From assembly GCA_913057985.1 (NCBI GenBank), contig CAJXPL010000015.1, positions 1 through 64,000 on the forward strand: 64,000 bases of DNA, read 5' to 3'. A program made the translations under genes and the position numbers. The notes under the pieces are model-generated. The model did no database searches. It was not told where the DNA came from and saw only the letters and a list, made by a program, of their open reading frames with translations. Within the stretch, counting starts at the first letter, position 1. Each line of letters starts with the position of its first letter. This DNA is from an uncultured Synechococcus sp. (lineage in GTDB: Bacteria > Cyanobacteriota > Cyanobacteriia > PCC-6307 > Cyanobiaceae). Shown in pieces: positions 4,851-46,036 of this stretch.

Positions 4851-5610
4851 GGGATCGGAGCCAGTTCGACAGCTTTAAGCCGGCGCTGTGCAGGGGATCG
4901 ATGGCCGGCAGAGGGACGTTCTGGATCAAGTGCTCCACAGACACATCGTTGTAAAACAGGCGCACATCGTCGCCGTAGATCTGCATCGCTTTCTCGATCA
5001 GAGCATCACTGTTGAAGTGGCTCTGCAGGTCGGCACGGTCACTCCGTCTGACGTTTTTCTGCGGCAACGACTCCATCACGTCGATGCCGCGGCGGGCCAA
5101 GAGGTCGCGCAGTTCCGCCCAGTGCACGTCGATTTGTTCAACGCGTCCCACAAACTTCGGCACGATCTGATTGCCGATGCACAGCAACTGGTTCTGGGGC
5201 AGAACATGAACGTCGTAGTGCTTGAACGGCGTCTCGATTAAGGCATCGAGGAAGGCCTCAAAGGACATGCCATGGGTGATGCCCATGTTCTGCATCGGCA
5301 GCGGTGGTGCTTCGATTTCGATCACCTTGTTGTTGTAGGCCGCGATCAGACGATCGAAGGGGTTGCGTACGAAGCTGAAGCTGAAATGGCTGCGCCGGTA
5401 CTTGCGGGCACGCCGCAAGGTGATCAGTTCCGTTTCCTGATTGGTTTCGTGCTGCCAGAACTTGTCGGAGGTTGTTTTGGTCCCCTTGGGAGGTCTCTCG
5501 CTGAGCAGGCGGCATAGGGCCGCTTTGATCGATGAATTCGCTGCCTTGGGGACCCGTCCGTAGAGCAGGTTGTGGCGCTTCATTCGGATGAAGTGATGCG
5601 GTTGGGCCAT
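4834..5610 (-). CDS. Sulfotransferase family 2 (carbohydrate type)
   Basis: Encodes 258 residues. The N-terminus LLYGRVPKAANSSIKAAL carries the short PAPS-binding loop of the Sulfotransfer_2 family, and the segment HFSFSFVRNPFDRLIAAYNNK carries the conserved RNPxxR motif for 3'-phosphate binding. These enzymes sulfate glycans. It lies between two other sulfotransferase genes, 3 bases from the upstream stop and overlapping the downstream start by 17 bases, so all three are translated from one message. It shares little with its neighbours apart from the loops, implying different acceptor sites. Confidence 0.8.
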   Translation of the reverse strand: MAQPHHFIRMKRHNLLYGRVPKAANSSIKAALCRLLSERPPKGTKTTSDKFWQHETNQETELITLRRARKYRRSHFSFSFVRNPFDRLIAAYNNKVIEIEAPPLPMQNMGITHGMSFEAFLDALIETPFKHYDVHVLPQNQLLCIGNQIVPKFVGRVEQIDVHWAELRDLLARRGIDVMESLPQKNVRRSDRADLQSHFNSDALIEKAMQIYGDDVRLFYNDVSVEHLIQNVPLPAIDPLHSAGLKLSNWLRSHGFRR

Positions 5611-5613
5611 GAA

Positions 5614-6531
5614 TTAGCGGCTTTTGGCGAAATTTTTTTCGAGGAATTTGCGAAACAGCTTCCATTCGCTGCGGCTGAACAGGGGTCGCGCCTGGATCGC
5701 CAGTTCAAGCCCCCGTTCGTTCAGGCCCGGATTCGTGGTTTTGTTCAGGTTTTCGTTCTCGGTGTTGGCTTCCAGCTGCTGCCTGAGCCGGTCGGCTTGC
5801 TGGGGCAGGGCCTGCTTGAGCACATTCCACAAAAAGGTGCTGGGCTCATGGGGATCGCTGGCTTGCTCATAGTCGATACGCACGATCTTCAAGTCGCGTT
5901 TGCTGCCCAGCTTCAACAGCGTCTGCTCCAGCGATTTGGGATCGGTGCAGGAGAAATCAGCCGTTTGTTGGAACGTGTCGAAGTGGCTGGTTTCAGGGTT
6001 GTGGCGTCCTTCCTTGAGCAGCTGGGTGTGGCAGGAGCGGATGAAGGCCTCGGGCTCCCTGTTGGCGAACAGCACCGTCCAGGCGATCGAACGATGCTCA
6101 AGGCTGTCTTCCAGCCCAGTGATCAAACGCTTGGTGCGCGATTTGGCATAGCGATACAAGCCCGTCTTGCGTTCCTTGTTGGGCGTTTTTCGGCGCGGCG
6201 GTTCTGCAAGGCCGTTGCGCAACGTTCCGAAAATCGCTTCGAAGGAGAGAAGGATGGTGTGGATCCTGTCGGGATGGTCTCCCGCTAGCTCCATCAGGGT
6301 GGATCGCGTTTGTGATGTCAGGCGTTTGGGCGTTTTGCGGTCCCAGCGGCCCCATTGCAGGTGACGCCACAACTCGGAGCAACGCTTTTTGAACGTGTTC
6401 GGCCCGAGATAGAGCACCCCCTGCTCCAGCAGCAGCTCGCGGTTGGTCTGCAGGTTCCGCTGCAGGTAGGTGCTGCCTGTTTTGTGCAGCCCGCAATGCA
6501 GAACAATCCGGTCCGGTTTGAGTTGACTCAC
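5614..6531 (-). CDS. Sulfotransferase-like protein
   Basis: Encodes about 305 residues from a GTG whose GTGA overlaps the stop of the NeuB-fusion gene, which decides the start. The N-terminal segment RIVLHCGLHKTGSTYLQRNL has the KTGST loop typical of PAPS-dependent sulfotransferases of the bacterial HKTGTT type. The segment AWTVLFANREPEAFIRSCHTQLL is the expected second motif. The C-terminal half is basic and rich in Lys and Arg. It is the first of three sulfotransferases and, by translational coupling, is tied to the nonulosonate synthase gene, so it may sulfate a nonulosonate-containing glycan. Confidence 0.7.
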   Translation of the reverse strand: MSQLKPDRIVLHCGLHKTGSTYLQRNLQTNRELLLEQGVLYLGPNTFKKRCSELWRHLQWGRWDRKTPKRLTSQTRSTLMELAGDHPDRIHTILLSFEAIFGTLRNGLAEPPRRKTPNKERKTGLYRYAKSRTKRLITGLEDSLEHRSIAWTVLFANREPEAFIRSCHTQLLKEGRHNPETSHFDTFQQTADFSCTDPKSLEQTLLKLGSKRDLKIVRIDYEQASDPHEPSTFLWNVLKQALPQQADRLRQQLEANTENENLNKTTNPGLNERGLELAIQARPLFSRSEWKLFRKFLEKNFAKSR

Positions 6532-8813
6532 GCGACCTGCCGTTCCGGGCTGGCTTCGACACAGCCTTCCAGACGTTCGAGGGCAAGCCAGGCACCTTCG
6601 CCATTGTTCTTGTGTCCCTGCCAGATTTCGGGAATGAAGGTCGCCTGCGGGGCGAGTTGGTCCATCAGGACAAACAGCTGGACCCAATCGATTTCGCCGT
6701 CGTGGATCTGCAGGCCTTCGCCATCGACCCCCTTCGCATCGGCCAGATGCAGGTGCGCCGTGAACGGAAGGATTGCCTTAAGGAAGGCACTGAACGAGGC
6801 CTTGAGGTGGGTGCAGGCGAGCTTCGAGTGGGACACATCCAGGCAGACGCGCATCCCGGTCTCCCGGCAGAAATCCTGAATGAAGGCGGTGTCGACGAAC
6901 AGGTTGTGATAGCGCTGCCCACCGAAGTGCCAGGGGAAGGGAGGCATGGTCTGGGGAATGATCTCCACCTCGTCGGCGGTGTTGATCTGCTGAAGGCTGT
7001 CGATCAGGCGCTGGCGCAGCGGTTGCAACTCCGCTCGCTCGAGATGGTGGTGTTCGGAGAAGCCGCCAACGTTCGTCACCAGCAGGACGGGATCGGGACA
7101 GCGGAAGCGGCGTCGCAGATCACGGGAAATGTCGACCACGCGTTGGAGTTCTTGAATCGAGTGGCGGCGGTAGTCGGAATCCGCGCTGCAGAGATCGAGG
7201 GTGTGATCGCCGGCAAACAGTTCGGGGGCGTGCACCACCAGGCCGATCGGCTGCGGTGTTGGCAGCACCTGGTCCAGATTTACCTCGAGATCCTTGTAGC
7301 TGAGGTGCATTTCCACCAGGTCGAGATTGCTTGTGGCAGCAAAGCTCTCGATGTCGTGGTATCTCACCGGGACGCCAAAGCGATGCTGGAAGCGGTAAGC
7401 GCGTGGGGTGGCTGCCGGGGTTTCCAGGTCGGAGGGGAAGAAGAAGTCCCCGGTGGCTTTGTTCACCGGCAAGGTCTTGCCGATGAGGTCATCCAGGCGA
7501 TTGGGCTGCAGACCCTGTCCAGGGCTCTGGATGCCCACCATCGCCTCGGTGATCTCCGTGCCGGCAGGCACATCGCAGGTGGCGACCAGGCTCTTGGCCA
7601 GCACTTCGCGGTTCATCATTTCGCCCTGGCTGATGCTGCGTTCACCGCCGCTGCCCATCGATTCCTCCACCCGGCGAATGCCCTGGATCATCTGGGCGAA
7701 TTCATTGGGCAACAGGCTCACCTTGTGGTCGTTGCCCTCCATGGAGCGATCGAGGGTGATGTGTTTCTCGATCACCACGGCGCCGAGGGCGGCGGCGGCA
7801 ATGGGCACTTCGATGCCGCGTTCATGGCCGGAGTAGCCCACGGGAGCCTCGGCCAGGTCCCGCAGCCGCTCGAGGTAGCGCAGGTTGACGTCCTTGAACG
7901 GGGTGGGATAGGTGGAATTGCAGTGGAGCAGCACGTAACCGGCTCCTTCGTTCTGGAGGTGCCGAATGCCAGAGCGGATCTCCACCTCAGACGCCATGCC
8001 GGTGGAGCAGATCAGCGGCTTGCCGGTGGCTGCAAGGCTGGAGAGCAGGGCGTGGTTGGTGAAATCGGCCGACGCCACCTTGAAGCCTTCCATGCCCCAG
8101 CGGTTGAGCTTCTCGAGGCTGGCTTCATCCCAGGCGGTGCAGAGGGGCACCAGCCCTTTGCTGGCGGCATGGTCAAAGCAGCGGAACAGTTCGTCGTCGC
8201 TGAGTTGAAAACGCTCGAGCAAATCCAGGGTGTACTGGGTGCCCAGATCGGAGGCCATGTCGTTGCTGTCCCCCGCATTGCGGTACAGCCGACTCATGTC
8301 CCGCATCTGGAACTTGGCGCAGTCCGCTCCCGCGGCGTGGGCGGCATCGATCAGTTGGAGCGCGATGTCGAGATCGCCGTTGTGGTTGTTGCCGATTTCG
8401 GCGATCAAAAAACAGGGGGCGTCATCACCGATGCGGTGGGAGCCGATCTGCAGCCCATCGGTGGCACGGCGGGCCACAGCCACGATCCGGCCATGGCTGT
8501 CCAGCAGCGGCAGGGCAATGATGCGGGAGTTGAGCAGGGCGCTCAGATCACTGGCGCTGGTGCCTTCGGCGGCCGAGCGGCAGTTTGAATTCATGGCCGC
8601 GGTGACCGGCCGGTTCAGGTCGATCTCGCCGCAAGTGGCAATCCAGCGGCGGAAGTCGCCGTCGGTGAGCACGCCTTGGAGGATGCCGCTCTCGGAAACA
8701 ACGAAGATCAGCCGCGACTGGTTGGCCGTGATCTTGCTGAGCGCCGAGAGGATGCTGTCTTCCGCGAAGACAACGAACTGGGTGAAATTCCGCTCAATCA
8801 GGATGCCTCTCAC
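6528..8813 (-). CDS. NeuB-type synthase with CBS, SAF and TIM-barrel domains
   Basis: Encodes 761 residues in four visible parts. Residues 1-118 look like a CBS pair (SILSALSKI, GVLTDGDFRRWI, LPLLDSHGRIVAV). Residues 132-385 are the NeuB synthase core (FLIAEIGNNHNGD, GYSGHERG, IEKHITLDRS), which condenses PEP with an N-acyl-hexosamine to a nonulosonic acid. Residues 403-458 are a SAF/antifreeze-like domain, usual in NeuB. Residues about 470-745 look like a xylose-isomerase-like TIM barrel (LVEMHLSYKDLE, VCLDVSHSKLAC, HLHLADAKG), resembling sugar-phosphate isomerases or epimerases. NeuB alone is about 350 residues. The fusion suggests that substrate preparation or product handling is coupled to synthesis, with nucleotide sensing by the CBS pair; these last roles are inferred. 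Confidence 0.85.
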   Translation of the reverse strand: MRGILIERNFTQFVVFAEDSILSALSKITANQSRLIFVVSESGILQGVLTDGDFRRWIATCGEIDLNRPVTAAMNSNCRSAAEGTSASDLSALLNSRIIALPLLDSHGRIVAVARRATDGLQIGSHRIGDDAPCFLIAEIGNNHNGDLDIALQLIDAAHAAGADCAKFQMRDMSRLYRNAGDSNDMASDLGTQYTLDLLERFQLSDDELFRCFDHAASKGLVPLCTAWDEASLEKLNRWGMEGFKVASADFTNHALLSSLAATGKPLICSTGMASEVEIRSGIRHLQNEGAGYVLLHCNSTYPTPFKDVNLRYLERLRDLAEAPVGYSGHERGIEVPIAAAALGAVVIEKHITLDRSMEGNDHKVSLLPNEFAQMIQGIRRVEESMGSGGERSISQGEMMNREVLAKSLVATCDVPAGTEITEAMVGIQSPGQGLQPNRLDDLIGKTLPVNKATGDFFFPSDLETPAATPRAYRFQHRFGVPVRYHDIESFAATSNLDLVEMHLSYKDLEVNLDQVLPTPQPIGLVVHAPELFAGDHTLDLCSADSDYRRHSIQELQRVVDISRDLRRRFRCPDPVLLVTNVGGFSEHHHLERAELQPLRQRLIDSLQQINTADEVEIIPQTMPPFPWHFGGQRYHNLFVDTAFIQDFCRETGMRVCLDVSHSKLACTHLKASFSAFLKAILPFTAHLHLADAKGVDGEGLQIHDGEIDWVQLFVLMDQLAPQATFIPEIWQGHKNNGEGAWLALERLEGCVEASPERQVA

Positions 8814-10165: not shown

Positions 10166-11190
10166 CGCTGCCCCTGGCGCTCCAGCGCGCTCAGGGCGTG
10201 GATCAGGCGGTTCGGTCCGTCGGTGATCTCAGCACCCATGCCCCCGAGCCAGGCCTGGTTCGCCAGGGGCAGGTCGTTGACGGCATCCAGGTGGGGGATG
10301 CTGCGCAGCCGATGCATGGCGCCGCAGCCGAAGAAGCCGGACGTGCTCTGTTCCTCGTGGATGCCGTAGTCGCCCACGATGATCGGGATCCGGCCCCAGG
10401 CCATGGCCGCGAGGCTCCAAGGTGAGCTCACTGTGAGGCAGGCGCTGCAGGATCCCAGCAGCGGCAACAGCTGTCCGGGGGCGGCGTCCACCAGGTTGTC
10501 CGCCCGGGGCGCGTCACTGGGCAGCAGCGCCGTCGTTGCGTCCCAGCTGTGGTCGCGTTGCAGCATCACGGTCCAGTCCGGCCGTTGGCGCGCCCAGCAG
10601 TTGAGTTGGCGCAGCAGTTGCTCCCGGGCACCGATATGGGTGGGGATCTGCTTTTGGATCAACGCCAGCAGCAAGGGCTGCTCGGCGGGGGCGCAGGGTG
10701 CGGCCGTGGGGAACCAGAAGCCCGTGCTGATCACGGCCGGCAGCTTCAGGCTCGCGGGCCAGTTGAAGGTGAGCGATTGCAGCTGACGGCGCTGGTGTTC
10801 GCCGCTCACCAGCAGCAGGTCACTGCCCAGGCGCAGGCTGAGATCGCGGATCAAGGCATCCCCCACCAAGGGCACGAGGGGCCCGCTGAACAACGTTGCT
10901 GCCGTCTGTTCACGTGCGCTGCAAAGGCCTTGATAGGTCTGGATGAAGCGCTGAACCTGATGTGGGTCCTGCAGGAACAGGCCAATGGCGGAGACCTGGT
11001 CCAAGAGGGGGTGTGCCGCCAGTTGCTGCACGTCGATGCTCAGGTGCGGTGCCGGCGTGGCCAGGGGTTGGTGTCCCTGAAGCGGTGGTCCTGCCGTGAT
11101 GCAGTGCTCCCCCTGCTGGTGCAGCACCTCGGCCATCAGCACGCAGGCGGACCGCTCCAGCCCTCCGTCGCTGACCAGCAGCAGGGTCAT
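10162..11190 (-). CDS. Putative capsule glycosyltransferase (DUF6716-like)
   Basis: Encodes 342 residues. The layout is two Rossmann-like halves: an N-terminal half starting MTLLLVSDGGLERSACVLMAEVL and a C-terminal half with CLTVSSPWSLAAMAWGRIPIIVGDYG, which corresponds to the nucleotide-sugar-binding part of GT-B folds. I recognise it as belonging with the DUF6716-type putative glycosyltransferases often found beside neuA and neuB. It is one of three tandem relatives and overlaps both neighbours by four bases, so all are one operon. It probably transfers a nonulosonic acid or related sugar; donor and acceptor are not visible. Confidence 0.6.
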   Translation of the reverse strand: MTLLLVSDGGLERSACVLMAEVLHQQGEHCITAGPPLQGHQPLATPAPHLSIDVQQLAAHPLLDQVSAIGLFLQDPHQVQRFIQTYQGLCSAREQTAATLFSGPLVPLVGDALIRDLSLRLGSDLLLVSGEHQRRQLQSLTFNWPASLKLPAVISTGFWFPTAAPCAPAEQPLLLALIQKQIPTHIGAREQLLRQLNCWARQRPDWTVMLQRDHSWDATTALLPSDAPRADNLVDAAPGQLLPLLGSCSACLTVSSPWSLAAMAWGRIPIIVGDYGIHEEQSTSGFFGCGAMHRLRSIPHLDAVNDLPLANQAWLGGMGAEITDGPNRLIHALSALERQGQR

Positions 11191-12518
11191 CGTTCCCGCA
11201 GCAGCTTGGAGAGCCAGCCGAATCCCACCACGCTGTCGCGCAGGCTGCGCAGCATGCGACGGGTGCGGTGACGCTTGCGTTGGCTGGAGCGGGCGCCACC
11301 GCTGCTCAGCATCCGCCGGCCCCCGTTGCGCAAGGCGGCTTTCTGCCAGTCACTGCTGCCCCAGCTGAGGGGGCCGTGGCTGGAGGTGCCCAGCGGTGCA
11401 GGCGGGTTGTTCAGCCGTTCCACCAGGGCGGTGATGAAGCGATGCTCGCCGTCCCGCTGCAGACCCTGCTGCTCGAGCCACTGCGGGTCATGGATGACGT
11501 CGAAAGGGTTGGCCTTGATGGCGCCGAAGCAGGCGATGGCGCCCGAGCTGGCGAAGAAGTGGTTGCCAAGGGTTTCGGTCACCCCCAGATCACCCACGAT
11601 GCGGGTGCTGATGCCCATCGCCATCGACTCCATGGCCGCCGTCGATGAGACGGTGATGGCGCAACCGCACTGGCGCAGCAGCAGGGTGGCGGGTTTGAAA
11701 CTCAGGCGCAGATTCGGTTGATCGCGCGTCATCTTGTCGATCACGCTGGCCATCTCCCCATGGCGCCTGTGCAGGGTGCTCTCGATGCTCGAGGTGCGTG
11801 GTTTGAAGATCACAGGGTGATCGGGCCAAGCCGCGGCCAGCGCTTTGATCTGGTCACAGAGAAAGCGGCGCTGCAGGGGATGCACCGGAATTGACGGCTG
11901 TTCGAAGAACACAATCGAAGGGGGATCCGGTTCTTCAGTGCGCTGTTTTGTGCGCCAGAGAATCGGCAGGCCCGTCACCACCGCATTGCTGCTATCGAGG
12001 CCCAGGGCTTTGCGGCCACGGCCATACAGAGCCAGATCGTCGGCACTGTTGAGGCAGAGCAGGTCGGCGCCCGAGCGATCCATCATTCCCTCGAGGCCGA
12101 AGCGGAACAGGATCCCGGGGTAAGCGCTGATCAGGCGTGGGCGTTGCTCCTGATTTGCCCAGATGTTTTGCAGTTGCAGCAGGGCGTCGCGGCTGCGCTG
12201 GCCATCCAGACCCAGGATCAGGGCATCGACCTCTCCTGCCATGCCCGTGCAGAGCTGGTGCAGATCGTTCCAGTTGTGTTTCTCGATACGAGTCTTGGGA
12301 TCGATTCGCCGAATTTCGAGACGCTGCCGGCGCGAGAGAGCCCGGTTGTTCAACTGCAAGAGCAGCAGGGTTGTCTCAGCTCCTTCCCGCCGGCAGGTTG
12401 CCAGCATGGTCATGGCGAGTTTGCCGAAGGAATCGAAGCAGGCCACGGCGGTGACCTTGCGGCCGACAAGGCGCTTGGATTCTGGGGGCGCCATCAACGG
12501 CAAAACCTTGCTGGGCAA
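11187..12518 (-). CDS. Putative capsule glycosyltransferase (DUF6716-like)
   Basis: Encodes 443 residues and is the best preserved of three tandem relatives. The N-terminal half begins KVTAVACFDSFGKLAMTMLA. The C-terminal half has PVIFKPRTSSIEST, CAITVSSTAAMESMAMGIS and RIVGDLGVTETLGNHFF, which resemble the CMP-sugar-binding C-terminal domain of sialyl- or polysialyltransferase-like GT-B enzymes. It follows neuA by two bases and overlaps the next gene by four. The context of NeuA and NeuB points to a CMP-activated sugar as donor, which is an inference. Confidence 0.65.
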   Translation of the reverse strand: MPSKVLPLMAPPESKRLVGRKVTAVACFDSFGKLAMTMLATCRREGAETTLLLLQLNNRALSRRQRLEIRRIDPKTRIEKHNWNDLHQLCTGMAGEVDALILGLDGQRSRDALLQLQNIWANQEQRPRLISAYPGILFRFGLEGMMDRSGADLLCLNSADDLALYGRGRKALGLDSSNAVVTGLPILWRTKQRTEEPDPPSIVFFEQPSIPVHPLQRRFLCDQIKALAAAWPDHPVIFKPRTSSIESTLHRRHGEMASVIDKMTRDQPNLRLSFKPATLLLRQCGCAITVSSTAAMESMAMGISTRIVGDLGVTETLGNHFFASSGAIACFGAIKANPFDVIHDPQWLEQQGLQRDGEHRFITALVERLNNPPAPLGTSSHGPLSWGSSDWQKAALRNGGRRMLSSGGARSSQRKRHRTRRMLRSLRDSVVGFGWLSKLLRER

Positions 12519-12520: not shown

Positions 12521-13201
12521 TTATTCGTCCTTTTGGGCCGCGATGCAGCGGCAGAGGGCCAGATCCTCCGGCGTGTCGATTTCTGGCCCCACCTGCTCCA
12601 ACATCACTGGGCGGGCTGGAGGGCAGAAGCGGCTGCCGCAGCGTCGGAAGGCCGCCAAATTCATGGCGTAGATCGCGCCGGTTTCCAAAAAAGCCGGTTC
12701 CAGGTCCTGGCGGCGTTGGCGAGGCTGTGCAGGGTCGTGGTTGATGCCCTGTCCATCGGCGCGCCAGAGGAAGCCGTGCCAGGGGCTGACGGCGAAGCTG
12801 CTATTGCAATCGTCTGCTTGCAAGGCGTGCAGCACCGCATCGATCTGCTCCCCGGTGGTAAAGGGGGAGGTGCATTGCAGGAAGACCAGCTCCGTTTCCA
12901 GTGGTCCCTGCTGCTCCAGCTGCTCGAGAGCATGCAGCAAGGCCGATTCCGAACTGGCCCTATCGCCGGCGATGGCGGCGGGGCGACGAATCACGCCAGC
13001 CCCTTCATGTTCGGCGGCGGCCGCGATGGCGTCATCGTCGGTGCTCACCACCACCCGGCCCACGGCAATGCTGGCCTGAGCTGCCCGAATGCTGCGGCAG
13101 ACCAGGGGCACGCCGCCCACCTGTTGCAGGTTTTTTCCCGGGATGCCCTTCGATCCGCCGCGGGCGGGGATCAGGGCCAGCGCGCCACGGGGGACTGCCA
13201 T
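12521..13201 (-). CDS. neuA: CMP-nonulosonate cytidylyltransferase
   Basis: Encodes about 226 residues. The start (AVPRGALALIPARGGSKGIPGKNL) is the classic nucleotide-binding P-loop of CMP-N-acetylneuraminate synthetases, followed by RVVVSTDDDAIAAAA, FLQCTSPFTTGEQID and PEIDTPEDLALC, all family hallmarks. It activates a nonulosonic acid such as sialic, legionaminic or pseudaminic acid with CTP. The ATG at 13201 is used because upstream codons would run into the divergent kpsC start. It heads the minus-strand operon with the three putative transferases and the NeuB fusion. Only 32 bases separate it from kpsC. Confidence 0.85.
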   Translation of the reverse strand: MAVPRGALALIPARGGSKGIPGKNLQQVGGVPLVCRSIRAAQASIAVGRVVVSTDDDAIAAAAEHEGAGVIRRPAAIAGDRASSESALLHALEQLEQQGPLETELVFLQCTSPFTTGEQIDAVLHALQADDCNSSFAVSPWHGFLWRADGQGINHDPAQPRQRRQDLEPAFLETGAIYAMNLAAFRRCGSRFCPPARPVMLEQVGPEIDTPEDLALCRCIAAQKDE

Positions 13202-13233
13202 CGGTGAGGATTCAGTGCGACCTGTCTTACCCG

Positions 13234-15231
13234 ATGACCAGGCCTGCTGCTCTGCGGCTCGGGGTTCCGGCCCGGGGGATGCTTGCCCACCAAACGCTGC
13301 CTGAGCTGATGGCACCGGACCGGTTGGTGCCAGGCCGCCACCGGGATGTGGATGTGCTGCTGGCCTGGGGGCGGCGCCCCAGTGCGCTGCGGGTGGAGCG
13401 CCTGGCGCGTCAGTGGGATCTACCGGTGTGGCATCTCGAGGACGGTCTGCTGCGCTCGGTGGCCAAGGGGCGGAAGCATCCCCCTCTGGCGTTGTTGGTG
13501 GATGTGTTGGGGGTGCATTTCGATGCCACGGCCCCCAGCCGGATGGAGCAGTTGATTGCGGCGCCGATCAATGCGGCTGAGGTTGACCGCGCTCGCGCTC
13601 TCCAGAGGCTGTGGCGTGAGCAACGGCTCAGCAAGGTGAACCCCCCGGTGGAGGCGGAGGCCCCTCAGGAGCCCTACGTGCTGGTGGTGGATCAATCCGC
13701 TGGGGATCGATCCATCGCCCTCGGGCTGGCGGATGCCAGCTGTTTTCAGCGGATGCTTCAGGCCGCCCTGGCGGATCATCCCGACTGCACGGTGGTGCTC
13801 AAGGTGCATCCGGATGTGATCTCTGGCCGCGCCCGGGGCCATTTCAAGGCTCAGGATCTGGCCCATCCCCGCGTCCGCCTGAGTGCGGATGGTGGCCATC
13901 CGGCACGGCTGCTCGAGCAAGCCCGGGCGGTGTATGTGGTCACCTCCCAGATGGGGTTTGAAGCCTTGCTCTGGGGTCGCCCGGTCCACTGCTTCGGTAT
14001 GCCGTTTTATGGCGGCTGGGGGCTGACCCACGACCGATGCGAGGCCCCAGTCCGGCGGCGCCAGGGCGCCAGCCTGGAGGCTCTGGTGCATGCCGCTCTG
14101 GTGGGGGCTTGCCGCTGCATCGACCCGCATCGGCACCAGCCCTGCAGCATCGAAACCTTGATGGCCGCGATCGGCTTGCAGCGGCGCCTGCAGGCGCAAC
14201 AGCCGCCGCGGTGTGTGGCCTTCGGTTTCACCCCCTGGAAACAGCGCAATCTGCGTCGCTTCCTGGCGGGCAGTCAGCTGCGCTTTCGCGCTCCCTGGCG
14301 GCGGATTCCGCAGGGCGTTGATGCCGTGGTGGTCTGGGGGCGGCGCGCCCGACCCAAGCTGCTCGACGCGGCGGCGCGGCGGCAGTTGCCGGTGCTGCAG
14401 GTGGAGGACGGTTTCCTGCGCTCGGTTGGCCTCGGGGCTGATCTGGTGGATCCGGTGTCTTGGGTGGTGGATCACCAAGGCGTGTACTACGACGCCACCC
14501 GGCCCAGTGATCTGGAAACACGCCTGGCAACGGGGCAGTGGACCCCGGCCCAACGCCAGCGGGCCGCGGCGTTGCGTCAGCGGTTGGTGGAGGAGGCGAT
14601 CACCAAGTACAACCTCCAGGCGGAGCCTTGGACGCGCCCTGCCGGCCAGCGACGGGTGGTGCTGGTGATCGGTCAGGTGGAAAGCGATGCTTCGATCCGC
14701 TACGGCGCCCCGGGGCTGCGCAGCAACCGCGCCTTGCTCGCCGCGGTGCGGGCGGCGGAGCCGGAGGCTTATCTCGTGTACAAGCCGCATCCCGATGTTG
14801 TGGCCGGTCTTTGCCGTGCCGGTGCCGGCGAGGACGGTGCCGCTGAGATCTGCGATGCGGTGCTGCCGCAGGGGTCGATCCAGCAGCTGTTCACTCAGAT
14901 TGATGCTCTCCATGTGCTCACCTCCCTGGCGGGGTTTGAGGCGTTGCTGCGCGGCTTGGAGGTCCACTGCTGGGGCCTTCCGTTCTATGCCGGCTGGGGA
15001 CTCACCCAGGACCGCGAACGTTGCGACCGCCGGCAGCGGAAGCTCGCGCTTGACGAGCTGGTGCATGCCGCCTTGATCGACTACCCCCGCTATGTCAGCC
15101 GCGATAGCGGCTGGTTCATCACGCCGGAGCAGGCCATCGACGATCTGGTGGCCTGGCGGGCAGCCCCACCGCAGCGGCGCACGCTTGTGCAGGCCCTGTT
15201 CCGCCACTGGGGCCGGCTGCGGCGCCGTTGA
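13234..15231 (+). CDS. kpsC: Capsule polysaccharide beta-Kdo transferase KpsC
   Basis: Encodes 665 residues and is internally duplicated. The N-half carries WHLEDGLLRSVAKG, VLKVHPD and the segment HCFGMPFYGGWGLT. The C-half repeats these as LQVEDGFLRSVGLG, VYKPHPD and HCWGLPFYAGWGLT. This is the known layout of KpsC, whose two modules alternate beta-2,4 and beta-2,7 Kdo transfer to build the Kdo linker on a phospholipid anchor of group 2-type capsules. It acts at the cytoplasmic face of the inner membrane with KpsS. It is divergent from neuA and followed by kpsS on the same strand. Length is usual for the family. Confidence 0.9.
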   Translation: MTRPAALRLGVPARGMLAHQTLPELMAPDRLVPGRHRDVDVLLAWGRRPSALRVERLARQWDLPVWHLEDGLLRSVAKGRKHPPLALLVDVLGVHFDATAPSRMEQLIAAPINAAEVDRARALQRLWREQRLSKVNPPVEAEAPQEPYVLVVDQSAGDRSIALGLADASCFQRMLQAALADHPDCTVVLKVHPDVISGRARGHFKAQDLAHPRVRLSADGGHPARLLEQARAVYVVTSQMGFEALLWGRPVHCFGMPFYGGWGLTHDRCEAPVRRRQGASLEALVHAALVGACRCIDPHRHQPCSIETLMAAIGLQRRLQAQQPPRCVAFGFTPWKQRNLRRFLAGSQLRFRAPWRRIPQGVDAVVVWGRRARPKLLDAAARRQLPVLQVEDGFLRSVGLGADLVDPVSWVVDHQGVYYDATRPSDLETRLATGQWTPAQRQRAAALRQRLVEEAITKYNLQAEPWTRPAGQRRVVLVIGQVESDASIRYGAPGLRSNRALLAAVRAAEPEAYLVYKPHPDVVAGLCRAGAGEDGAAEICDAVLPQGSIQQLFTQIDALHVLTSLAGFEALLRGLEVHCWGLPFYAGWGLTQDRERCDRRQRKLALDELVHAALIDYPRYVSRDSGWFITPEQAIDDLVAWRAAPPQRRTLVQALFRHWGRLRRR

Positions 15232-15304
15232 GGCGTGCCAGGATTTTGCCCATTCATGGGCGGGATGCAGTTTGGGCAGGGGACGGGCGCCAGCTCTCGT
15301 ACAG

Positions 15305-17290
15305 GTGCGGATCGAGGGACCAGTTCTGCTGTTGATGGGTCCGATCGGTCTGTTCTTCGCCCGCTTGTGCCGCTACTTGCAAGGCTGTGGCATTCCGGTC
15401 ACGAAGGTGGCGTTCCCCCTGCGGGAATTCGGCTTCCCAGGCGATGTCTGCGTGTCCTACAGCAAGGGGATGGATTCTTGGCGCCCCTTCCTGCGTCGGC
15501 TGATTGAAGAACGGGGAATTCGCCACATCTTTATGTATGGCGACTTCATCATTCCCCACCGGATTGCCATTGAAGAAGCCCGCGCCCTCGGCGTTGAAGC
15601 CTGGGTGTTTGAGCTTGGCTATCTGCGCCCGAACTACGTGACGCTGGAGCGGGATCGGGTCAATGCCCGCTCCAATCTCAACAAGCCAGCAGCCTTCTAT
15701 CGGGAGCTCCCCCCGTGTGACCAGCTGCCGCAAAACATCGTTCTGGACCCGGGCTGGCGCTGGCGCAAGGCCTGGAAAGCGCCAACCTTCATTCAGCACG
15801 CCTTCACCCGCTACCCGATCATCGAAGGGGAGCACAAGCTTCAGCCTTCCCCAGGCTTCCTCTGGTGCCAGGTGAGGGGCACCTGGCGCTATTGGCTCTA
15901 CCGCTGGCAGGAGCGGGCGGTGAAGCAGCGGTTGCTGGAACACTGCTCCTTCTTTCTGGCGGTGTTGCAGGTCTCCAGCGATTCGCAGATTCAGATGGGG
16001 TCGCCCTACCGCGGCATGCACGACTTCATCGAAGACGTGATCCGTTCCTTCGCCGGCCATGCCCATGCCTCCGACCATCTGGCCTTCAAGCACCATCCCC
16101 GGGATCGCGGTTACAACAACTACGCCTCATTGATCCGGCTGCTCGCCAAGCAATACGGCGTTTCTGGCCGGGTGCATTACTTCCACGACGGACCCCTCAG
16201 CCGCTACCTGCGCACCTGCCGTGGGGTGATCACGGTGAACAGCACCGTGGGGCTGCAGGCCTTGTTCCATGCCGTGCCCACCAAGACGATGGGGGACACC
16301 TTTTACAACCTGGAGGGATTGACCGATCAGAAGCCGCTCGATGCCTTCTGGTGTGATCCCCAGCCCAGCGATCGGGCCCTCTTCTATCGCTTCTACAACC
16401 ATCTGGTGCTCACCACCCAGGTGAATGGGAATTTCGATGGAGATTTCCCTTTCCGCACGACCTTCCCGATCGGTCCGGAAGCCCGTCAGCTTCCCCCCAG
16501 TCCCGAACTACCGACTCCGATAGCAGGTAGGCTTCGCAGCCCTGTTGTGCTGCTGGGACGGCTAGTGGGCAGGCTGGCCTGGGCTGGCCTTGGTTTCACC
16601 CTCTATGGCCTGCAGCTGCCAGCGATGCTGCTGCGAAGACCCGACTGGGCCGCTGCATTGATGACCATGGCCTCCTCCGTGGCCCTGCGGGCCCTGGGCA
16701 TTCAGGTGTTGGTGGATGACAGCCAACCCTCGGAACCGGTCGGCATGCCTTTGGTGCACATTTTCAATCACCGCAGCCCTTGTGACGGCTTGGTGATTCA
16801 AGGGCTTCTGCGCATGCCGGGGCTGACCACGGCGCAGCTGCACCTGCGTTGGGTGCTGCCGGGCTATGCCGCTGCCGCCCGCAATGCCGGCTCTGCGGTG
16901 TTGGATCACCGCCAGCCCCAGTCGCGCCTGGCCGGAATGATGAGTGCCTCCACGCTGTTGCGGGACCACGGTGAAATCATGATTGCCCCCAACGGTTCGC
17001 TGGTGACACCGATCGAGGAGCGGGTGTCTCCCAGTGCCTGGATGCTGGCCCAGCACTATGGCGGCCGGGTGGTGCCCTGGTTCTTCAGTTACGACGGATT
17101 GGAGGGGGCCGTCGGTGCCCGCTACAATCCGCTGCAGCTGTTGCTTGGTCGCTTAACGGCACCCTTGGGCACGATTCGCTGTCGCCGTGGTCGAGCGGAC
17201 GATCTTCAGCTGCCCGTTGATCCCCGTGACCGTGAGGGATTCAGCGCAGCTGTTCAGCGGTACTACCGGGAGCAGACAGCACAAGACTGA
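15305..17290 (+). CDS. kpsS: KpsS fused to a PlsC-like acyltransferase
   Basis: Encodes about 661 residues from a GTG (next ATG at 15335). Residues 1-390 match KpsS: LLLMGPIGLFFARLCRYL at the start, FKHHPRDRGY, GVITVNSTVGLQAL. KpsS adds the first Kdo to (lyso)phosphatidylglycerol and is normally about 390-400 residues. The rest is extra: a hydrophobic stretch at about 410-460, then FNHRSPCDG with the HxxxxD acyltransferase signature at 489-494 and MIAPNGSL at 559-566 where PlsC-like enzymes have FPEGT-type motifs. The added domain is thus probably a 1-acylglycerol-phosphate acyltransferase relative. It may acylate the lipid anchor or recruit it. It converges with the ketoacyl synthase gene with 50 bases of antisense overlap. 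Confidence 0.85.
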   Translation: MRIEGPVLLLMGPIGLFFARLCRYLQGCGIPVTKVAFPLREFGFPGDVCVSYSKGMDSWRPFLRRLIEERGIRHIFMYGDFIIPHRIAIEEARALGVEAWVFELGYLRPNYVTLERDRVNARSNLNKPAAFYRELPPCDQLPQNIVLDPGWRWRKAWKAPTFIQHAFTRYPIIEGEHKLQPSPGFLWCQVRGTWRYWLYRWQERAVKQRLLEHCSFFLAVLQVSSDSQIQMGSPYRGMHDFIEDVIRSFAGHAHASDHLAFKHHPRDRGYNNYASLIRLLAKQYGVSGRVHYFHDGPLSRYLRTCRGVITVNSTVGLQALFHAVPTKTMGDTFYNLEGLTDQKPLDAFWCDPQPSDRALFYRFYNHLVLTTQVNGNFDGDFPFRTTFPIGPEARQLPPSPELPTPIAGRLRSPVVLLGRLVGRLAWAGLGFTLYGLQLPAMLLRRPDWAAALMTMASSVALRALGIQVLVDDSQPSEPVGMPLVHIFNHRSPCDGLVIQGLLRMPGLTTAQLHLRWVLPGYAAAARNAGSAVLDHRQPQSRLAGMMSASTLLRDHGEIMIAPNGSLVTPIEERVSPSAWMLAQHYGGRVVPWFFSYDGLEGAVGARYNPLQLLLGRLTAPLGTIRCRRGRADDLQLPVDPRDREGFSAAVQRYYREQTAQD

Positions 17291-18521
17291 TGTTGTGACC
17301 ACCGAAGCCAAAGGCGTTCTTGAGCATCAGTCGCTCGGAGCTTGAGGCAACCAGCTCGACGGGGCCCTGGCTGGTGACCGCCAGCTCCACTTCAGGGTCA
17401 AGGGGATCGGAATTGATGCTGCGGGGCAGCACGCCTTGCCGAATGGCTTGCACGCCAAGAATCGCCTCCACAGCTCCTGCGGCTCCCAGCAGATGGCCGA
17501 TCTGGCCCTTGGGGGCGAAGACGGGGATGTGATCGGCGGCAGCCCCCAGGCTGCGGCGTAGCGCCCTCGCTTCGGCAAGGTCGCCCAGGTTTGTGCCGGT
17601 GGCATGGGCTTGAACGGCGCAGAGATCGCCAGGTTCCACCCCAGCTCGTCGCAGGGCATCCTCGATCGCTTGGCTGGCTTGAGTGCCCTGAGGTTCAGGC
17701 GCCACGATGTGATGGCCGTCGCTGCTGCTGCCACAGGCCAGTTGCCAACCCAGTGCTGCACCGCTGGGGGTGTCCTCCTCTCGCATCATTGCGACCACGC
17801 CCGCCCCCTCGGAGAGCACAAATCCGTCCCGGTTTTTGCTGTAGGGCCGGGAGGCCTGGTCAGGAGCATCATTTCGGGAGGACAGGGCCCGCATGGCGGA
17901 GAAGCCCACGAGTCCCAGTCGGTTCACTGGAGCTTCGGTGCCGCCGGCAAGCACGAGATCGGCCCGCCCGTCATTGAGCAGCATCTGGGCCAGCATCATC
18001 GCTTCGGCTCCTGATGCACAGGCCGATACAGGGGTGTGCGCGCCGCCATGCAAGCCCAGGTCGATGGCGACCTGCCCCGCTGCTGCATCGGGGATCAGCA
18101 TCGGAACAGTGAGAGGGTTGACTCGTGTTGGTCCCCCGGCAGTCAGCTGGTTGTGCTGTTCATGCATCGTGTGGAGTCCGCCGATGCCAGTACCCAGCAC
18201 GATTGCCACGCGGGCTGGATCAATTCCGCTGGTGAACGCGGAAGCCATGGCCCAGGCCTCCCTAGCGGCCAGCAGCCCGAGCTGGGCGCAGCGGTCGGAG
18301 CGCCGCTGCAGCAACGGTTCCAGGGATGCGGTCGCTGCCTCGGGCACGCAGCCCGAAATGCGCACCGGAAGGTCTTCGCTCCAGGCTGCGCTCAGGGCTC
18401 GGATGCCGGAGCGGCCCGCCAACACGCCATCCCAGGTGGACGCGGCGTCACAGCCGAGTGGGGAGACGGAGCCCCACCCTACGATCGAAACCCGCTTGGA
18501 AAGTTGCTGCCGCACTACCAC
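17241..18521 (-). CDS. Beta-ketoacyl-ACP synthase II-type (FabF-like)
   Basis: Encodes 426 residues. The Cys-His-His triad of decarboxylating KAS enzymes is visible: Cys168 in VSACASGAEA, His306 in VQAHATGTNLGD and His343 in KGQIGHLLGAAG. The terminal FGFGGHN glycine-rich segment is present as well. It elongates acyl-ACP with malonyl-ACP. It starts 2 bases after a dedicated acyl carrier protein gene, which suggests a specialised acyl product rather than housekeeping synthesis; the housekeeping fabF of cyanobacteria is normally linked to acpP and transketolase genes. It is downstream of an N-acyltransferase gene and converges on the KpsS-acyltransferase gene. Confidence 0.85.
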   Translation of the reverse strand: MVVRQQLSKRVSIVGWGSVSPLGCDAASTWDGVLAGRSGIRALSAAWSEDLPVRISGCVPEAATASLEPLLQRRSDRCAQLGLLAAREAWAMASAFTSGIDPARVAIVLGTGIGGLHTMHEQHNQLTAGGPTRVNPLTVPMLIPDAAAGQVAIDLGLHGGAHTPVSACASGAEAMMLAQMLLNDGRADLVLAGGTEAPVNRLGLVGFSAMRALSSRNDAPDQASRPYSKNRDGFVLSEGAGVVAMMREEDTPSGAALGWQLACGSSSDGHHIVAPEPQGTQASQAIEDALRRAGVEPGDLCAVQAHATGTNLGDLAEARALRRSLGAAADHIPVFAPKGQIGHLLGAAGAVEAILGVQAIRQGVLPRSINSDPLDPEVELAVTSQGPVELVASSSERLMLKNAFGFGGHNISLVLSAPGSTAEQLR

Positions 18522-18523
18522 TG

Positions 18524-18805
18524 TCAGGCGGTTGTGGAACTGGGGGGATCGATGTTGAGTGATTCCAGATGGCGCTGGATGTCACCCACCGTCTTGAACT
18601 GCAGCAGCTGCTCTTCTTGGATGCGGATGCCGAAGCAGGTATCGGCCTCGATCAGAATTTCGTAAAACCCGAGGGAGTCGATCCCGATGTCTTCCATCAG
18701 GCGGGCGTCTGCGGTGATGACCGCAGGGTCGGCGCCGGAAATGCGATGCAGGATTTCGACAAGGTGTCCCTCCAGCTGATGCTTATCGAGAGTTCCCTCG
18801 CTCAA
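18524..18805 (-). CDS. Acyl carrier protein
   Basis: Encodes 93 residues. The phosphopantetheine attachment motif is DSLG in EDIGIDSLGFYEI (Ser44), within a four-helix ACP-like sequence, with acidic helix 2 as expected. It carries acyl groups as thioesters. It differs from the usual highly conserved cyanobacterial AcpP (DSLDxVE) by having DSLGFYEI, which is more like carrier proteins of secondary or specialised pathways. It sits between a GNAT-type acyltransferase and a KAS, and probably supplies acyl chains to one or both. Confidence 0.85.
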   Translation of the reverse strand: MSEGTLDKHQLEGHLVEILHRISGADPAVITADARLMEDIGIDSLGFYEILIEADTCFGIRIQEEQLLQFKTVGDIQRHLESLNIDPPSSTTA

Positions 18806-18850
18806 CGCCGCCTACCGAGTTATTCCAGTAAAGTACCAGTGTTGACGGGT

Positions 18851-19792
18851 TTATCCCTCGCCTCGGTACCAGCTGAACCGCTGGTAGACGGGTTGGTGGT
18901 CAACCTCGATGAAGAAGCCGAGCCGTTCCTTCGGCAGGTCTGAGAGGACGGCGGCCATCAGGATCTCAGTGATCTGGTTGAAATCCTTCGCCAGAGAGAG
19001 GTCGCAGACCTTGGCTTCCATCAGGTTGAAGTATTGGCGCAACAGCACCGGCAGACGGAAGTCCTCGCTGTGCTCCTGGCGGATAGCCATTTCCAGGGCT
19101 TGAACGTTGCCGCTCGGGTGGGTGCTGTCGCTGGGCTGGATGTTGTTGATCGGGTGACGCGGTGGCGGCAGCGTTGGGCTCGTCCTGCGGTAGGGAGGCC
19201 GCAGTAAGGCACTGAGGAAGGTTGTATTGACTGCTTCGCTGTGTGCGAAATGGTTGTAGGAGACCAGCCCGTGCAGGACGTTGTAACCCGAGTGGGCTGC
19301 GATCAGAAGCCCTCCGCGGAACAACGCCATCAGAGAGTGCGGTTGGCGCTGAAAGCGTGGGGCAAGGGCGACTCGACCAATTTCCACATGGTGGTTTTGC
19401 CCCGCCAGCATCGCTTTAATTCCTGGATAGACATGCTCCAGATAGGACTGTTGGCTGCTGGGGAGTTGCTCGGCTGAACTGAACTGAGGAATGAATTGCA
19501 ACCGTGCAGACCCCGCTAGGGCACCGGTGTTCGATTCCAAAAGAATCAGATGGTCGTAAGAGGTGTCGCGGCCGTCAAGGTCGCGTGTGTTGCCGGAGCC
19601 AGAGAGCTGCTGGCGGTAGGTGGATTCCCTCAGAGTGCCTACAGCATCAGCGACGGTCTCAAATGTTGATCCAGGGATCAGATGCAGCTCTAAACCGTCG
19701 AGCTGGAACAGCAGAGTTGTTGCGCGATTGGCTTCGCTCCAACCGGTAGGGAGCAAGACGTCATGCTGCGGTGCTGGTCCGATCTGCGTCAT
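18851..19792 (-). CDS. GNAT-type N-acyltransferase (OlsB/FeeM-like)
   Basis: Encodes 313 residues. Segments LLESNTGALAGSARLQFIPQ, VEIGRVALAPRFQRQPHSLMALFRGGL and YNVLHGLVSYNHFAHSEA read as the fold of acyl-ACP-dependent GNAT acyltransferases, the group that includes OlsB and the N-acyl amino acid synthases such as FeeM. These use acyl-ACP rather than acyl-CoA, which fits the ACP gene 45 bases downstream. The likely product is an N-acylated amine or amino acid; the substrate is unknown. First gene of a three-gene minus-strand operon with ACP and KAS. Divergent from a Wza-like exporter gene. Confidence 0.7.
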   Translation of the reverse strand: MTQIGPAPQHDVLLPTGWSEANRATTLLFQLDGLELHLIPGSTFETVADAVGTLRESTYRQQLSGSGNTRDLDGRDTSYDHLILLESNTGALAGSARLQFIPQFSSAEQLPSSQQSYLEHVYPGIKAMLAGQNHHVEIGRVALAPRFQRQPHSLMALFRGGLLIAAHSGYNVLHGLVSYNHFAHSEAVNTTFLSALLRPPYRRTSPTLPPPRHPINNIQPSDSTHPSGNVQALEMAIRQEHSEDFRLPVLLRQYFNLMEAKVCDLSLAKDFNQITEILMAAVLSDLPKERLGFFIEVDHQPVYQRFSWYRGEG

Positions 19793-19837: not shown

Positions 19838-21055
19838 TTGACCGCTGTCTCAGCTCCACCCATGGTTGTGCCCTCAAGGACCGGTCTTTCCGCAGCTGTT
19901 GCTGCAGCGGTGATGCTCTCGGCTCCTGTGATGTTGGGCGGTGGTGTGAAGGCTGAAGAGCGGATCAACTGGCTGAAGACCCCGGCGGCCGCGCGTAGGT
20001 CTCTGCAATCGCCCCCACCGTTGCCATCCCCGCCCAGCCTGCCGCCCCAGACCTACCGATATCGCTTAGCTCCCGGGGATCGGTTGGTCACTTCGGTGTT
20101 CAAGATCGACGGTTATGAGGCGCAAGTGCAGGTGTTGAGTGACGGCACCATTAATCTCCCGCGACTTGGCACAGTTGATGTGTGGGGGTTGACCTTGGAG
20201 GAAGCCCGGCAGCGCATCACCGATGGCTACAGCCAATTTCTGAGGCGCCCCCTGGTTTATCTCGACCTTGTTGAACAGCGTCCAGTTCGGATCACGGTTA
20301 CAGGTCAGGTTTTGCGTCCCGGCGTCTTCACACTTCCTGTCAACGGTTCAGGTTCCGCGGGGGGCTCTGGAACTCTCACTGGAGTCGGCTCCGATGGTGG
20401 CGGTTGGCCGACCATGATCGACGTGATTCAGAAAGCTGGTGGGATTTCTGCTTCAGGTGATTTGGCCCGTCTGGAACTACTGAGGCCGTCTCCTTCGCCA
20501 GGAGGACCAACCCAGAGCTTCGTTTTCGACTACCTCAATGTGCTGAAAAACGGAGGATTTGCTCCCAATCCATTGATCTACGACGGCGACAGCATCCGGG
20601 TACACAAAGCAACGACACCGATCAACGTTGACTTACTAACGACGGCTGCTTCTAACTTCGCTCCCTCTGCGATCAATGTTCAGGTTGTTGGTGAGGTCGT
20701 TTCGCCTGGGGTGGTCCAGGTTGGATCCAATGCCCCTTTGTCACGCGCCATTCTTGCTTCCGGAGGCGTCACCCGTCGGGGAAGCTCAAAGCGGGTGGAC
20801 TTGATTCGAATGGATGGTCAGGGTCGTACAACCGTGAAACAGTTGCGCTACGACCCCAACGCTGTACTGAGCAATGTGAATAACCCGCCGCTACGCAACG
20901 GTGATGTTGTAGTGGTGGATCGCAACAACTTCACGAAGGTCACCGACACCATGACTGATGCCATGTTGCCGCTCGAACCGATTGTTGATGCGGCTTCTGT
21001 CTTCCGGCTTCTGGGGATGCCGACAGGAGTCGGTTCATCTTCCCGTAATCGTTAG
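19838..21055 (+). CDS. Wza-like polysaccharide export protein (SLBB)
   Basis: Encodes 405 residues from TTG (ATG at 19862 is an alternative). After a signal-peptide-like N-terminus (AAVAAAVMLSAPVMLGGGVKA) comes a Poly_export domain (YRYRLAPGDRLVTSVFKIDGY, VLSDGTINLPRLGTVDVWG) and then SLBB-type beta-grasp repeats (VTGQVLRPGVFTL, VQVVGEVVSPGVVQV). These form the outer-membrane polysaccharide export channel in Wza. No lipobox Cys is visible, so membrane attachment may differ. A second relative lies at 44215-45282. It ends one base before the convergent purB stop. Confidence 0.8.
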   Translation: MTAVSAPPMVVPSRTGLSAAVAAAVMLSAPVMLGGGVKAEERINWLKTPAAARRSLQSPPPLPSPPSLPPQTYRYRLAPGDRLVTSVFKIDGYEAQVQVLSDGTINLPRLGTVDVWGLTLEEARQRITDGYSQFLRRPLVYLDLVEQRPVRITVTGQVLRPGVFTLPVNGSGSAGGSGTLTGVGSDGGGWPTMIDVIQKAGGISASGDLARLELLRPSPSPGGPTQSFVFDYLNVLKNGGFAPNPLIYDGDSIRVHKATTPINVDLLTTAASNFAPSAINVQVVGEVVSPGVVQVGSNAPLSRAILASGGVTRRGSSKRVDLIRMDGQGRTTVKQLRYDPNAVLSNVNNPPLRNGDVVVVDRNNFTKVTDTMTDAMLPLEPIVDAASVFRLLGMPTGVGSSSRNR

Positions 21056-45287: not shown

Positions 45288-46036
45288 TCAGGCATACCCC
45301 TCAGGGTTTTGCTGCTGCCAGGCCCAACCGTCCCGGCAGATGTCTTCAAGGCTTCGCTGGGTGCGCCAACCCAGTCGCTCAGCTGCTTGTCTGGGATCGG
45401 CGACGCTGATGGCGGCATCGCCAGGCCGACGATCGGTGATTGCACAGGGGATGGAACGGCCGCTGGCGGCTTCCATGGCCTGCGCCACCTCGAGGACGGA
45501 CTGTCCCTGGCCGCTGCCCAGGTTGAGGGTGAGCAGCTGCGGTGCTTCCGCCAGCAGGCAGTCCAGGGCGGCACGGTGCCCTTCGGCGAGATCCATCACG
45601 TGGATGAAATCACGCACGCCCGTGCCATCGGGGGTGGGCCAGTCGCCGCCGAACACCTGAAGCTGTGCTCTGCGGCCCACGGCCACCTGACTCACAAAGG
45701 GAAAGAGGTTGTTGGGGATGCCCAGCGGGTTTTCGCCAATGCGGCCAGGGGGATGGGTGCCAACTGGGTTGAAATAGCGCAGGCAGGCGATCCGCCAGGA
45801 GTCCGGGGCACTGGCGTGTAAGTCGGCCAGCATCCGCTCCACAGCGGCTTTGGTGTGGCCGTAGGGGTTGATCGGAGCGATGGGAGCTGTCTCTGAGATC
45901 GGTACGGCCTCTGGGTAGCCGTAGAGCGTGGCGCTGCTGCTGAACACGAGGGTGTGGCAGCCATGGGTCTGCATGGCCTCCAGAAGGCAGCGGCTCCCAT
46001 GGAGATTCACATCCCAGTAGCGCAGGGGGTGCTCTC
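45288..46036 (-). pseudogene. galE: 5'-truncated UDP-glucose 4-epimerase
   Basis: The minus-strand frame encodes the C-terminal about 250 residues of GalE: VFSSSATLYGYPEAVPISE, the catalytic YGHTK, CLRYFNPVGTHP and DWPTPDGTGVRDFIHVMDLAEGH. Homology extends upstream to about 46036 (PLRYWDVNLHG) and then stops. The N-terminal Rossmann part with the GxxGxxG NAD motif and about 90 residues is missing, replaced by unrelated sequence. It cannot bind NAD normally and is taken as a truncated pseudogene. The break marks one edge of the recombination zone. It converges with wza, 5 bases apart. Confidence 0.8.

What the first reader, a model, noticed from the sequence alone, without database searches (positions are those of the whole stretch)
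17241..19792. ACP, ketoacyl synthase and N-acyltransferase set facing the capsule genes
A GNAT-type acyl-ACP acyltransferase, a divergent ACP (DSLGFYEI instead of the usual AcpP motif) and a KAS form one operon that converges on kpsS-plsC. The gene types recall the fee cluster for N-acyl amino acids. It could supply a special acyl chain to the capsule anchor or make an acylated amine.
Basis: partly seen in the sequence, partly recalled or inferred. Interest (0 to 1): 0.7.

Follow-up and report, generated by a model that had tools for sequence, protein, structure and literature searches.

The report
Capsule-linked lipid-making genes in marine Synechococcus
In marine picocyanobacteria the genes that attach a sugar capsule to the cell always travel with an acyltransferase, and almost always with a private fatty-acid carrier and synthase, resembling enzymes for amino-acid lipids, which suggests that this capsule sits on an unusual lipid anchor.

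Summary
On the minus strand, GNAT (18851-19792), ACP (18524-18805) and KAS (17241-18521) form one operon. It converges, overlapping by 50 bp, on a single gene encoding a KpsS-PlsC fusion. All catalytic residues are kept. The genome has a separate housekeeping acpP-fabF pair, and this is its only PF13444 protein. In 201 family genomes, GNAT and KpsS occur in exactly the same 25 of 131 good-quality genomes, and wherever the contig reaches they are neighbours. ACP-KAS is usually present but is absent from five fetched loci that keep GNAT and KpsS-PlsC. The genome also encodes the whole CMP-Kdo pathway, KpsC, KpsM and KpsE, but no recognisable LPS Kdo transferase. The GNAT is closest to the N-acyltransferase half of the ornithine-lipid synthase OlsF, and its fold to AHL synthases and FeeM. 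GNAT plus PlsC domain is the N-/O-acyltransferase pair of aminolipid synthesis, here joined to the enzyme family that puts the first Kdo on the capsule anchor. Most likely it builds an acyloxyacyl aminolipid-type capsule anchor. Capsule-specific acylation is strongly supported; the chemistry of the product is inferred. I rate it a new variant of the ABC-dependent capsule system.

The parts
18851..19792 (-). GNAT N-acyltransferase (P0001), OlsF-C/GlsB-like; conserved R55, D71-x-D73, E137-x-x-R140, LPVLLRQY...DFNQ tail
   Evidence: PF13444; OlsF model positions 302-562, E 1.6e-17; AlphaFold pLDDT 90, AHL synthases/FeeM Z 13-13.6; motifs
18524..18805 (-). dedicated acyl carrier protein (P0002), phosphopantetheine Ser in GIDSLGFYEI
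   Evidence: PF00550; invariant D43-S44-L45 in the alignment; the only other PF00550 protein in the genome is acpP at C9
17241..18521 (-). dedicated beta-ketoacyl-ACP synthase (P0003), FabF-like, Cys168/His306/His343/Lys338 kept
   Evidence: PF00109/PF02801; TIGR03150 400.8 bits, below the fabF equivalog cut-off 493.75, own fabF 637.5; catalytic columns invariant
15092..17290 (+). KpsS-PlsC fusion (likely start near 15305): N-terminal Kdo-transferase-like KpsS domain, C-terminal PlsC acyltransferase with NHx4D
   Evidence: PF05159 + PF01553, NF050054 KpsS 284 bits; Foldseek: T. maritima PlsC, KpsC D160C complex, WbbB Kdo transferase; motifs
12901..15231 (+). KpsC (likely start near 13234), poly-Kdo-extending transferase
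   Evidence: PF05159, 286 bits, 4 stretches; neighbour of KpsS in the relatives
19838..21055 (+). outer-membrane polysaccharide exporter (Wza/KpsD type), divergent from the GNAT
   Evidence: PF02563 + PF10531; conserved neighbour
12521..13315 (-). CMP-sugar synthetase of PseF/KdsB superfamily, beside kpsC in most relatives
   Evidence: TIGR03584 PseF 133 bits, below its cut-off 205.7; synteny
11187..12518 (-). DUF6716 putative glycosyltransferase of the capsule locus
   Evidence: PF20471 193 bits; synteny

Best explanation
The operon is a capsule-dedicated acylation module of an ABC-transporter-dependent (kps) capsule system. Proposed mechanism: the KAS (with housekeeping FabG) builds a 3-oxo- then 3-hydroxyacyl chain on the private ACP. 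The GNAT transfers this 3-hydroxyacyl chain to the amino group of a small acceptor, an amino acid or similar amine. The PlsC domain of the KpsS fusion acylates the 3-hydroxyl, giving an acyloxyacyl aminolipid. The KpsS domain of the same polypeptide adds the first Kdo to this lipid, KpsC extends the Kdo linker, and KpsM/KpsE/KpsD-Wza export the capsule. Shown here: gene content, intact active-site residues, purifying selection, linkage and co-occurrence with kpsS, a complete CMP-Kdo pathway, and family placement of each protein. Inferred: substrates, product, and that the product is the capsule anchor rather than a free lipid. Loci without ACP-KAS would use housekeeping ACP.
For: GNAT and KpsS are present in the same 25 of 131 good-quality family genomes and absent together from the other 106 (Fisher p 2e-27, phylogeny ignored). 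Both vary together inside genera g1, g5, g9, g45 and g51. GNAT lies beside KpsS-PlsC in every locus whose contig reaches that far, including five without ACP-KAS. The KpsS-PlsC fusion is conserved. kdsA is over cut-off in 27/27 KpsS genomes against 87/201 overall. Own genome: kdsD/kpsF, kdsC, kdsB, kdsA, KpsM- and KpsE-like genes, but no WaaA over cut-off; LPS of marine Synechococcus WH8102 and CC9311 has no Kdo (PMC4515613). All 24 GNATs match OlsF's N-acyltransferase half; OlsB (GNAT) + OlsA (PF01553) is the known aminolipid pair (PMC11631085). It is the only PF13444 protein in the genome. KpsC and WbbB Kdo transferases and a PlsC are hit by the fusion model. GNAT and KpsS trees share their main clades.
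Against: No biochemical data. The GNAT scores far below the OlsF equivalog cut-off (63 of 620 bits), and no ornithine-type lipid is reported for picocyanobacteria in the papers found. Known kps anchors are phosphatidylglycerol (PMC11041684, PMC12220298). In genus g32 the PlsC domain has decayed while the GNAT stays. ACP-KAS is missing in five loci. The fusion model is of moderate quality (pLDDT 76, pTM 0.48). PlsC motif III is PNGSLV, not the usual EGTRS.
Confidence: 0.5

Rival explanations
1. The module makes a free aminolipid or N-acyl amino acid for the membrane or for signalling, and sits in the surface-polysaccharide locus only because it is co-regulated.
For: OlsB/OlsF/GlsB and FeeM relatives make free lipids or acyl amino acids (PMC11631085); fold nearest AHL synthases and FeeM; own transcription direction, opposite to kpsCS.
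Against: Complete co-occurrence with kpsS, and the O-acyltransferase-like PlsC domain is fused to KpsS itself. No GNAT without kps was found in good-quality genomes.
Confidence: 0.17
2. The GNAT N-acylates an amino sugar or the glycan-side linker of the capsule with a long or hydroxylated acyl chain, and PlsC adds a second chain (a diacyl-HexNAc anchor, functionally like the Vi antigen).
For: Vi antigen uses a diacyl-HexNAc anchor (PMC12220298; PMC9597891, listed); nonulosonate-type genes (NeuB-like, PseF-like) lie in the window.
Against: No homology to VexE was tested; the closest relatives of the GNAT use amino acids; KpsS and KpsC are kept here, whereas the Vi system lacks them (PMC12220298).
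Confidence: 0.15
3. The anchor is ordinary PG or lyso-PG. PlsC re-acylates lyso-PG, while the GNAT-ACP-KAS adds an unrelated amine acylation.
For: PG is the known kps anchor and E. coli-type KpsS uses it (PMC11041684); the PlsC domain resembles a lysophosphatidic acid acyltransferase.
Against: Does not explain why the GNAT always accompanies KpsS-PlsC, even when ACP and KAS are absent.
Confidence: 0.12
4. The three genes are a generic duplicate of fatty acid synthesis with no capsule role; linkage is shared ancestry only.
For: The KAS is FabF-like.
Against: The KAS is only about 37% identical to own FabF; presence and absence vary together with kpsS inside several genera; conserved under selection.
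Confidence: 0.03

Closest known systems
OlsF bifunctional ornithine lipid synthase (and split pairs OlsB/OlsA, GlsB/GlsA)
   Same: PF13444 N-acyltransferase plus a PlsC-like O-acyltransferase; same R, D-x-D, E-x-G-R and LPVLLRQY...FN motifs
   Different: The O-acyltransferase domain (PF01553, as in OlsA) is fused to KpsS, not to the GNAT; a dedicated ACP and KAS are usually added; scores far below the OlsF equivalog cut-off; acceptor unknown
Group 2/3 (ABC-dependent, kps) capsules of E. coli, Pasteurella and Neisseria
   Same: KpsS, KpsC, KpsM, KpsE, KpsD/Wza-type exporter and CMP-Kdo pathway present
   Different: KpsS carries a C-terminal PlsC domain and is always with a GNAT; the known anchor is PG, without such an acyl module (PMC11041684, PMC12220298); none of 101 PLSDB records with a KpsS match covers the PlsC part
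Sinorhizobium rkp-1 cluster (fatty acid synthase-like genes for K-antigen)
   Same: Fatty-acid-synthase-type genes dedicated to a capsule-like polysaccharide (PMC7902896 citing Petrovics 1993)
   Different: rkpA is a very large gene in most strains; I did not test the cluster for a GNAT of this family or a KpsS-PlsC fusion
fee cluster (FeeM, N-acyl amino acid synthase)
   Same: GNAT fold with Z 13.0 over 171 residues
   Different: No sequence-level match to solved FeeM; OlsF-C is the closest family by sequence; capsule linkage not known for fee

Membership tests
OlsF ornithine lipid synthase (NF052615) | whole-protein score over the equivalog cut-off (620 bits) | tested here: not met
   63.3 bits; only positions 302-562 of 570 matched
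OlsF / OlsB aminolipid N-acyltransferase superfamily | PF13444 domain with the conserved acyl-transfer residues | tested here: met
   PF13444 over cut-off; R55, D71-x-D73, E137-x-G139-R140 invariant; all 24 members match OlsF-C
OlsBA-type aminolipid pathway | partner PF01553 O-acyltransferase with NHx4D | tested here: met
   C-terminal domain of KpsS, PF01553 28.3 bits over 23; NHx4D in 12 of 13 aligned fusions, lost in L047
OlsBA-type aminolipid pathway | makes acyloxyacyl amino acid lipid | not testable with these tools
   needs lipid mass spectrometry
ABC-dependent (group 2/3) kps capsule system | KpsS and KpsC Kdo transferases | tested here: met
   PF05159 over cut-off in both; NF050054 KpsS 284 bits, below its equivalog cut-off 600; fold hits KpsC and WbbB
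ABC-dependent (group 2/3) kps capsule system | CMP-Kdo supply (kdsA-D) | tested here: met
   kdsD/kpsF, kdsC, kdsB, kdsA at G000:C9
ABC-dependent (group 2/3) kps capsule system | KpsM, KpsT, KpsE exporter | tested here: inconclusive
   KpsM- and KpsE-like genes found at G000:C4, both far below their NCBIfam cut-offs; the neighbouring KpsT-like ORF matches no family and shows no Walker A
ABC-dependent (group 2/3) kps capsule system | phosphatidylglycerol anchor | not testable with these tools
   needs structural analysis of the capsule reducing end
housekeeping FabF (TIGR03150) | equivalog score of at least 493.75 bits | tested here: not met
   400.8 bits; the fabF at C9 scores 637.5
housekeeping AcpP | acyl_carrier equivalog TIGR00517, 70.45 bits | tested here: not met
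   39.3 bits; separate acpP at C9
fee cluster / FeeM | sequence relationship to FeeM | tested here: inconclusive
   no profile hit in PDB sequences; fold match Z 13.0, tied with AHL synthases
Sinorhizobium rkp-1 | homologous FAS genes with a capsule locus | not tested
   read from PMC7902896 only

The most novel reading that the evidence does not exclude
The picocyanobacterial kps capsule is built on an acyloxyacyl aminolipid instead of phosphatidylglycerol. A bifunctional KpsS-PlsC enzyme both completes the lipid and adds the first Kdo, with a private ACP and ketosynthase supplying the chain. This would be a new class of capsule anchor, and a phosphorus-free one.
Probability: 0.4. Interest if true: 0.8.

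Novelty: new variant of a known kind. Interest (0 to 1): 0.62.

Why it matters
A 2015 phylum-wide study read the confined distribution of KpsS/KpsC, KpsF and KpsU as suggesting that cyanobacterial EPS lacks a poly-Kdo linker, or that another mechanism moves Kdo to the lipid (PMC4594306). This locus shows that a subset of abundant picocyanobacteria carries a kps-type system with a full CMP-Kdo pathway and a conserved extra acyl-transfer module on the anchor enzyme. It makes the nature of the capsule anchor in these phytoplankton directly testable, and would explain what Kdo is for in organisms whose LPS lacks it. A phosphorus-free surface lipid would fit low-phosphate oceans (inference).

Tried and rejected
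Only fabF/acpP pair in the genome: rejected. No conserved linkage: rejected. Recent duplicate of housekeeping genes: unlikely, KAS about 37% and ACP about 20% identical. Spread across the phylum: the GNAT profile found 13 of 386 genomes, 11 of them in this family plus two weak partial hits outside (G222, G287) that I did not follow; full-length KpsS-PlsC was found only in this family. Plasmid hits of the GNAT: the three I opened (Vibrio, Bernardetia, Aureibacter) are long proteins of about 590-610 aa; the Vibrio one, which I scanned, is an OlsF-like acyltransferase-GNAT fusion; I saw no kps genes in the stretches fetched. The Foldseek/VIA list for the GNAT shows no OlsB or OlsF structure; this excludes nothing. 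Recalled E. coli K5 kfaABC (ACP/KAS by kps) could not be verified in the library, so it is not used.

Full report
What is there. Window 17241-19792 on the minus strand holds three ORFs in one operon: GNAT 18851-19792, ACP 18524-18805 and KAS 17241-18521. Pfam gives PF13444, PF00550 and PF00109/PF02801. They run tail-to-tail into a plus-strand ORF (15092-17290) that fuses KpsS (PF05159) and a PlsC acyltransferase (PF01553). KpsC lies before it, and a Wza/KpsD-type exporter lies upstream of the GNAT on the other strand. The correction is that kpsS-plsC is one gene.

Dedicated, not housekeeping. The genome (G000, 99.6% complete) has one other ketosynthase and one other ACP, adjacent at C9:76062-77038. 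That fabF passes the equivalog cut-off (637 against 494 bits); the window's KAS does not (401 bits). Catalytic Cys168, His306, His343 and Lys338, and the ACP serine, are invariant across relatives. dN/dS against two relatives is 0.08-0.17 for the three genes.

Linkage. In 201 genomes of the family the GNAT occurs in 27 and KpsS in 27. The genomes of at least 90% completeness are the same 25 in both searches, so the other 106 have neither (Fisher p 2e-27, not corrected for phylogeny). The mismatched genomes are incomplete (G159 80%, G103 88%). Presence varies together inside several genera (for example g1: G131 and G174 lack both; g5, g9, g45 and g51 each have members with both and with neither). 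In the fetched loci the order exporter - GNAT - ACP - KAS - (converging) PlsC/KpsS - KpsC is kept. Five loci (L040, L041, L042, L044, L049; L042 and L044 are the same stretch) keep GNAT and KpsS-PlsC but have no ACP-KAS between them, so the GNAT-KpsS pair is the core and ACP-KAS an accessory. GNAT and KpsS trees share main clades. Outside the family, 386 phylum genomes gave no full-length KpsS-PlsC and only two weak partial GNAT hits.

The capsule system around it. The genome also encodes KpsM- and KpsE-like proteins at C4 and kdsD/kpsF, kdsC, kdsB and kdsA at C9. kdsA is over cut-off in all 27 KpsS genomes against 87 of 201 (hypergeometric 1e-11). No WaaA was found over cut-off, and the LPS of marine Synechococcus WH8102 and CC9311 lacks Kdo (PMC4515613). 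A capsule linker is therefore the likeliest use of Kdo here (inference). An earlier phylum study had suggested that cyanobacterial EPS lacks the poly-Kdo linker or uses another transfer mechanism (PMC4594306).

What the acyl module resembles. The C-terminal, N-acylating half of OlsF is the one family that all 24 GNATs match, and the best match of the window's own protein. The shared motifs include the C-terminal LPVLLRQY...FN tail seen in a Vibrio OlsF. The AlphaFold model (pLDDT 90) matches AHL synthases (Z up to 13.6) and FeeM (Z 13.0). OlsB adds an acyl chain to an amino group by an amide bond and OlsA (PF01553) forms the ester bond (PMC11631085); in these lipids the first chain is a 3-hydroxy fatty acid (PMC12493201, abstract). 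Here the same two domain types are GNAT and the PlsC domain of KpsS. The fusion model hits a PlsC structure and the Kdo transferases KpsC and WbbB, and KpsS keeps the QVxxDxQ block (Q to L variants at the end aside) in all rows.

Mechanism proposed. KAS plus FabG make 3-hydroxyacyl on the private ACP; GNAT moves it to an amine; PlsC esterifies the hydroxyl; KpsS in the same chain adds Kdo; KpsC extends; the exporter moves the product. Only the parts list and the linkage are shown; substrates and product are inferred. Weak points: decayed PlsC in g32, absent ACP-KAS in some loci, an unusual PlsC motif III, and the known PG anchor elsewhere (PMC11041684, PMC12220298).

Novelty. The system works like aminolipid synthesis joined to a group 2/3 capsule. 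It is not an OlsF member by cut-off, and it differs from known kps systems in the KpsS-PlsC fusion and the GNAT. Of 101 plasmid records with a KpsS match none covers the PlsC part, though that sample is narrow. No paper found in the library describes it, and most subscription journals are not held.

Noticed in passing
L145:8095-8916 (G000:C4): The KpsT-position ORF beside KpsM and KpsE matches no Pfam or NCBIfam model and shows no Walker A motif; the exporter ATPase may be decayed, replaced or encoded elsewhere.
   Followed up: partly
L047:11747-13603 (G032): The PlsC domain of the KpsS fusion has collapsed (NHx4D lost) although GNAT, ACP and KAS remain.
   Followed up: partly
L035:12492-13214; L054:11759-12511: A second PF01553 acyltransferase gene lies between the KAS and the KpsS-PlsC fusion in these two loci.
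   Followed up: partly
L070:4449-5648 (G051): The GNAT match contains an in-frame TAG; possible pseudogene or assembly error.
   Followed up: no
window 6528-8813: A single ORF joins a CBS (KpsF-like) region, NeuB/PseI synthase, SAF and a xylose-isomerase-like barrel: an unusual fused nonulosonate enzyme.
   Followed up: no
window 45288-46010: Short GDP-mannose dehydratase-like ORF (matching only the C-terminal part of the profile) close to a full copy at 47080-48234.
   Followed up: no
window 3999-5610: Two adjacent sulfotransferase genes near the capsule locus, pointing to a sulfated polysaccharide.
   Followed up: no
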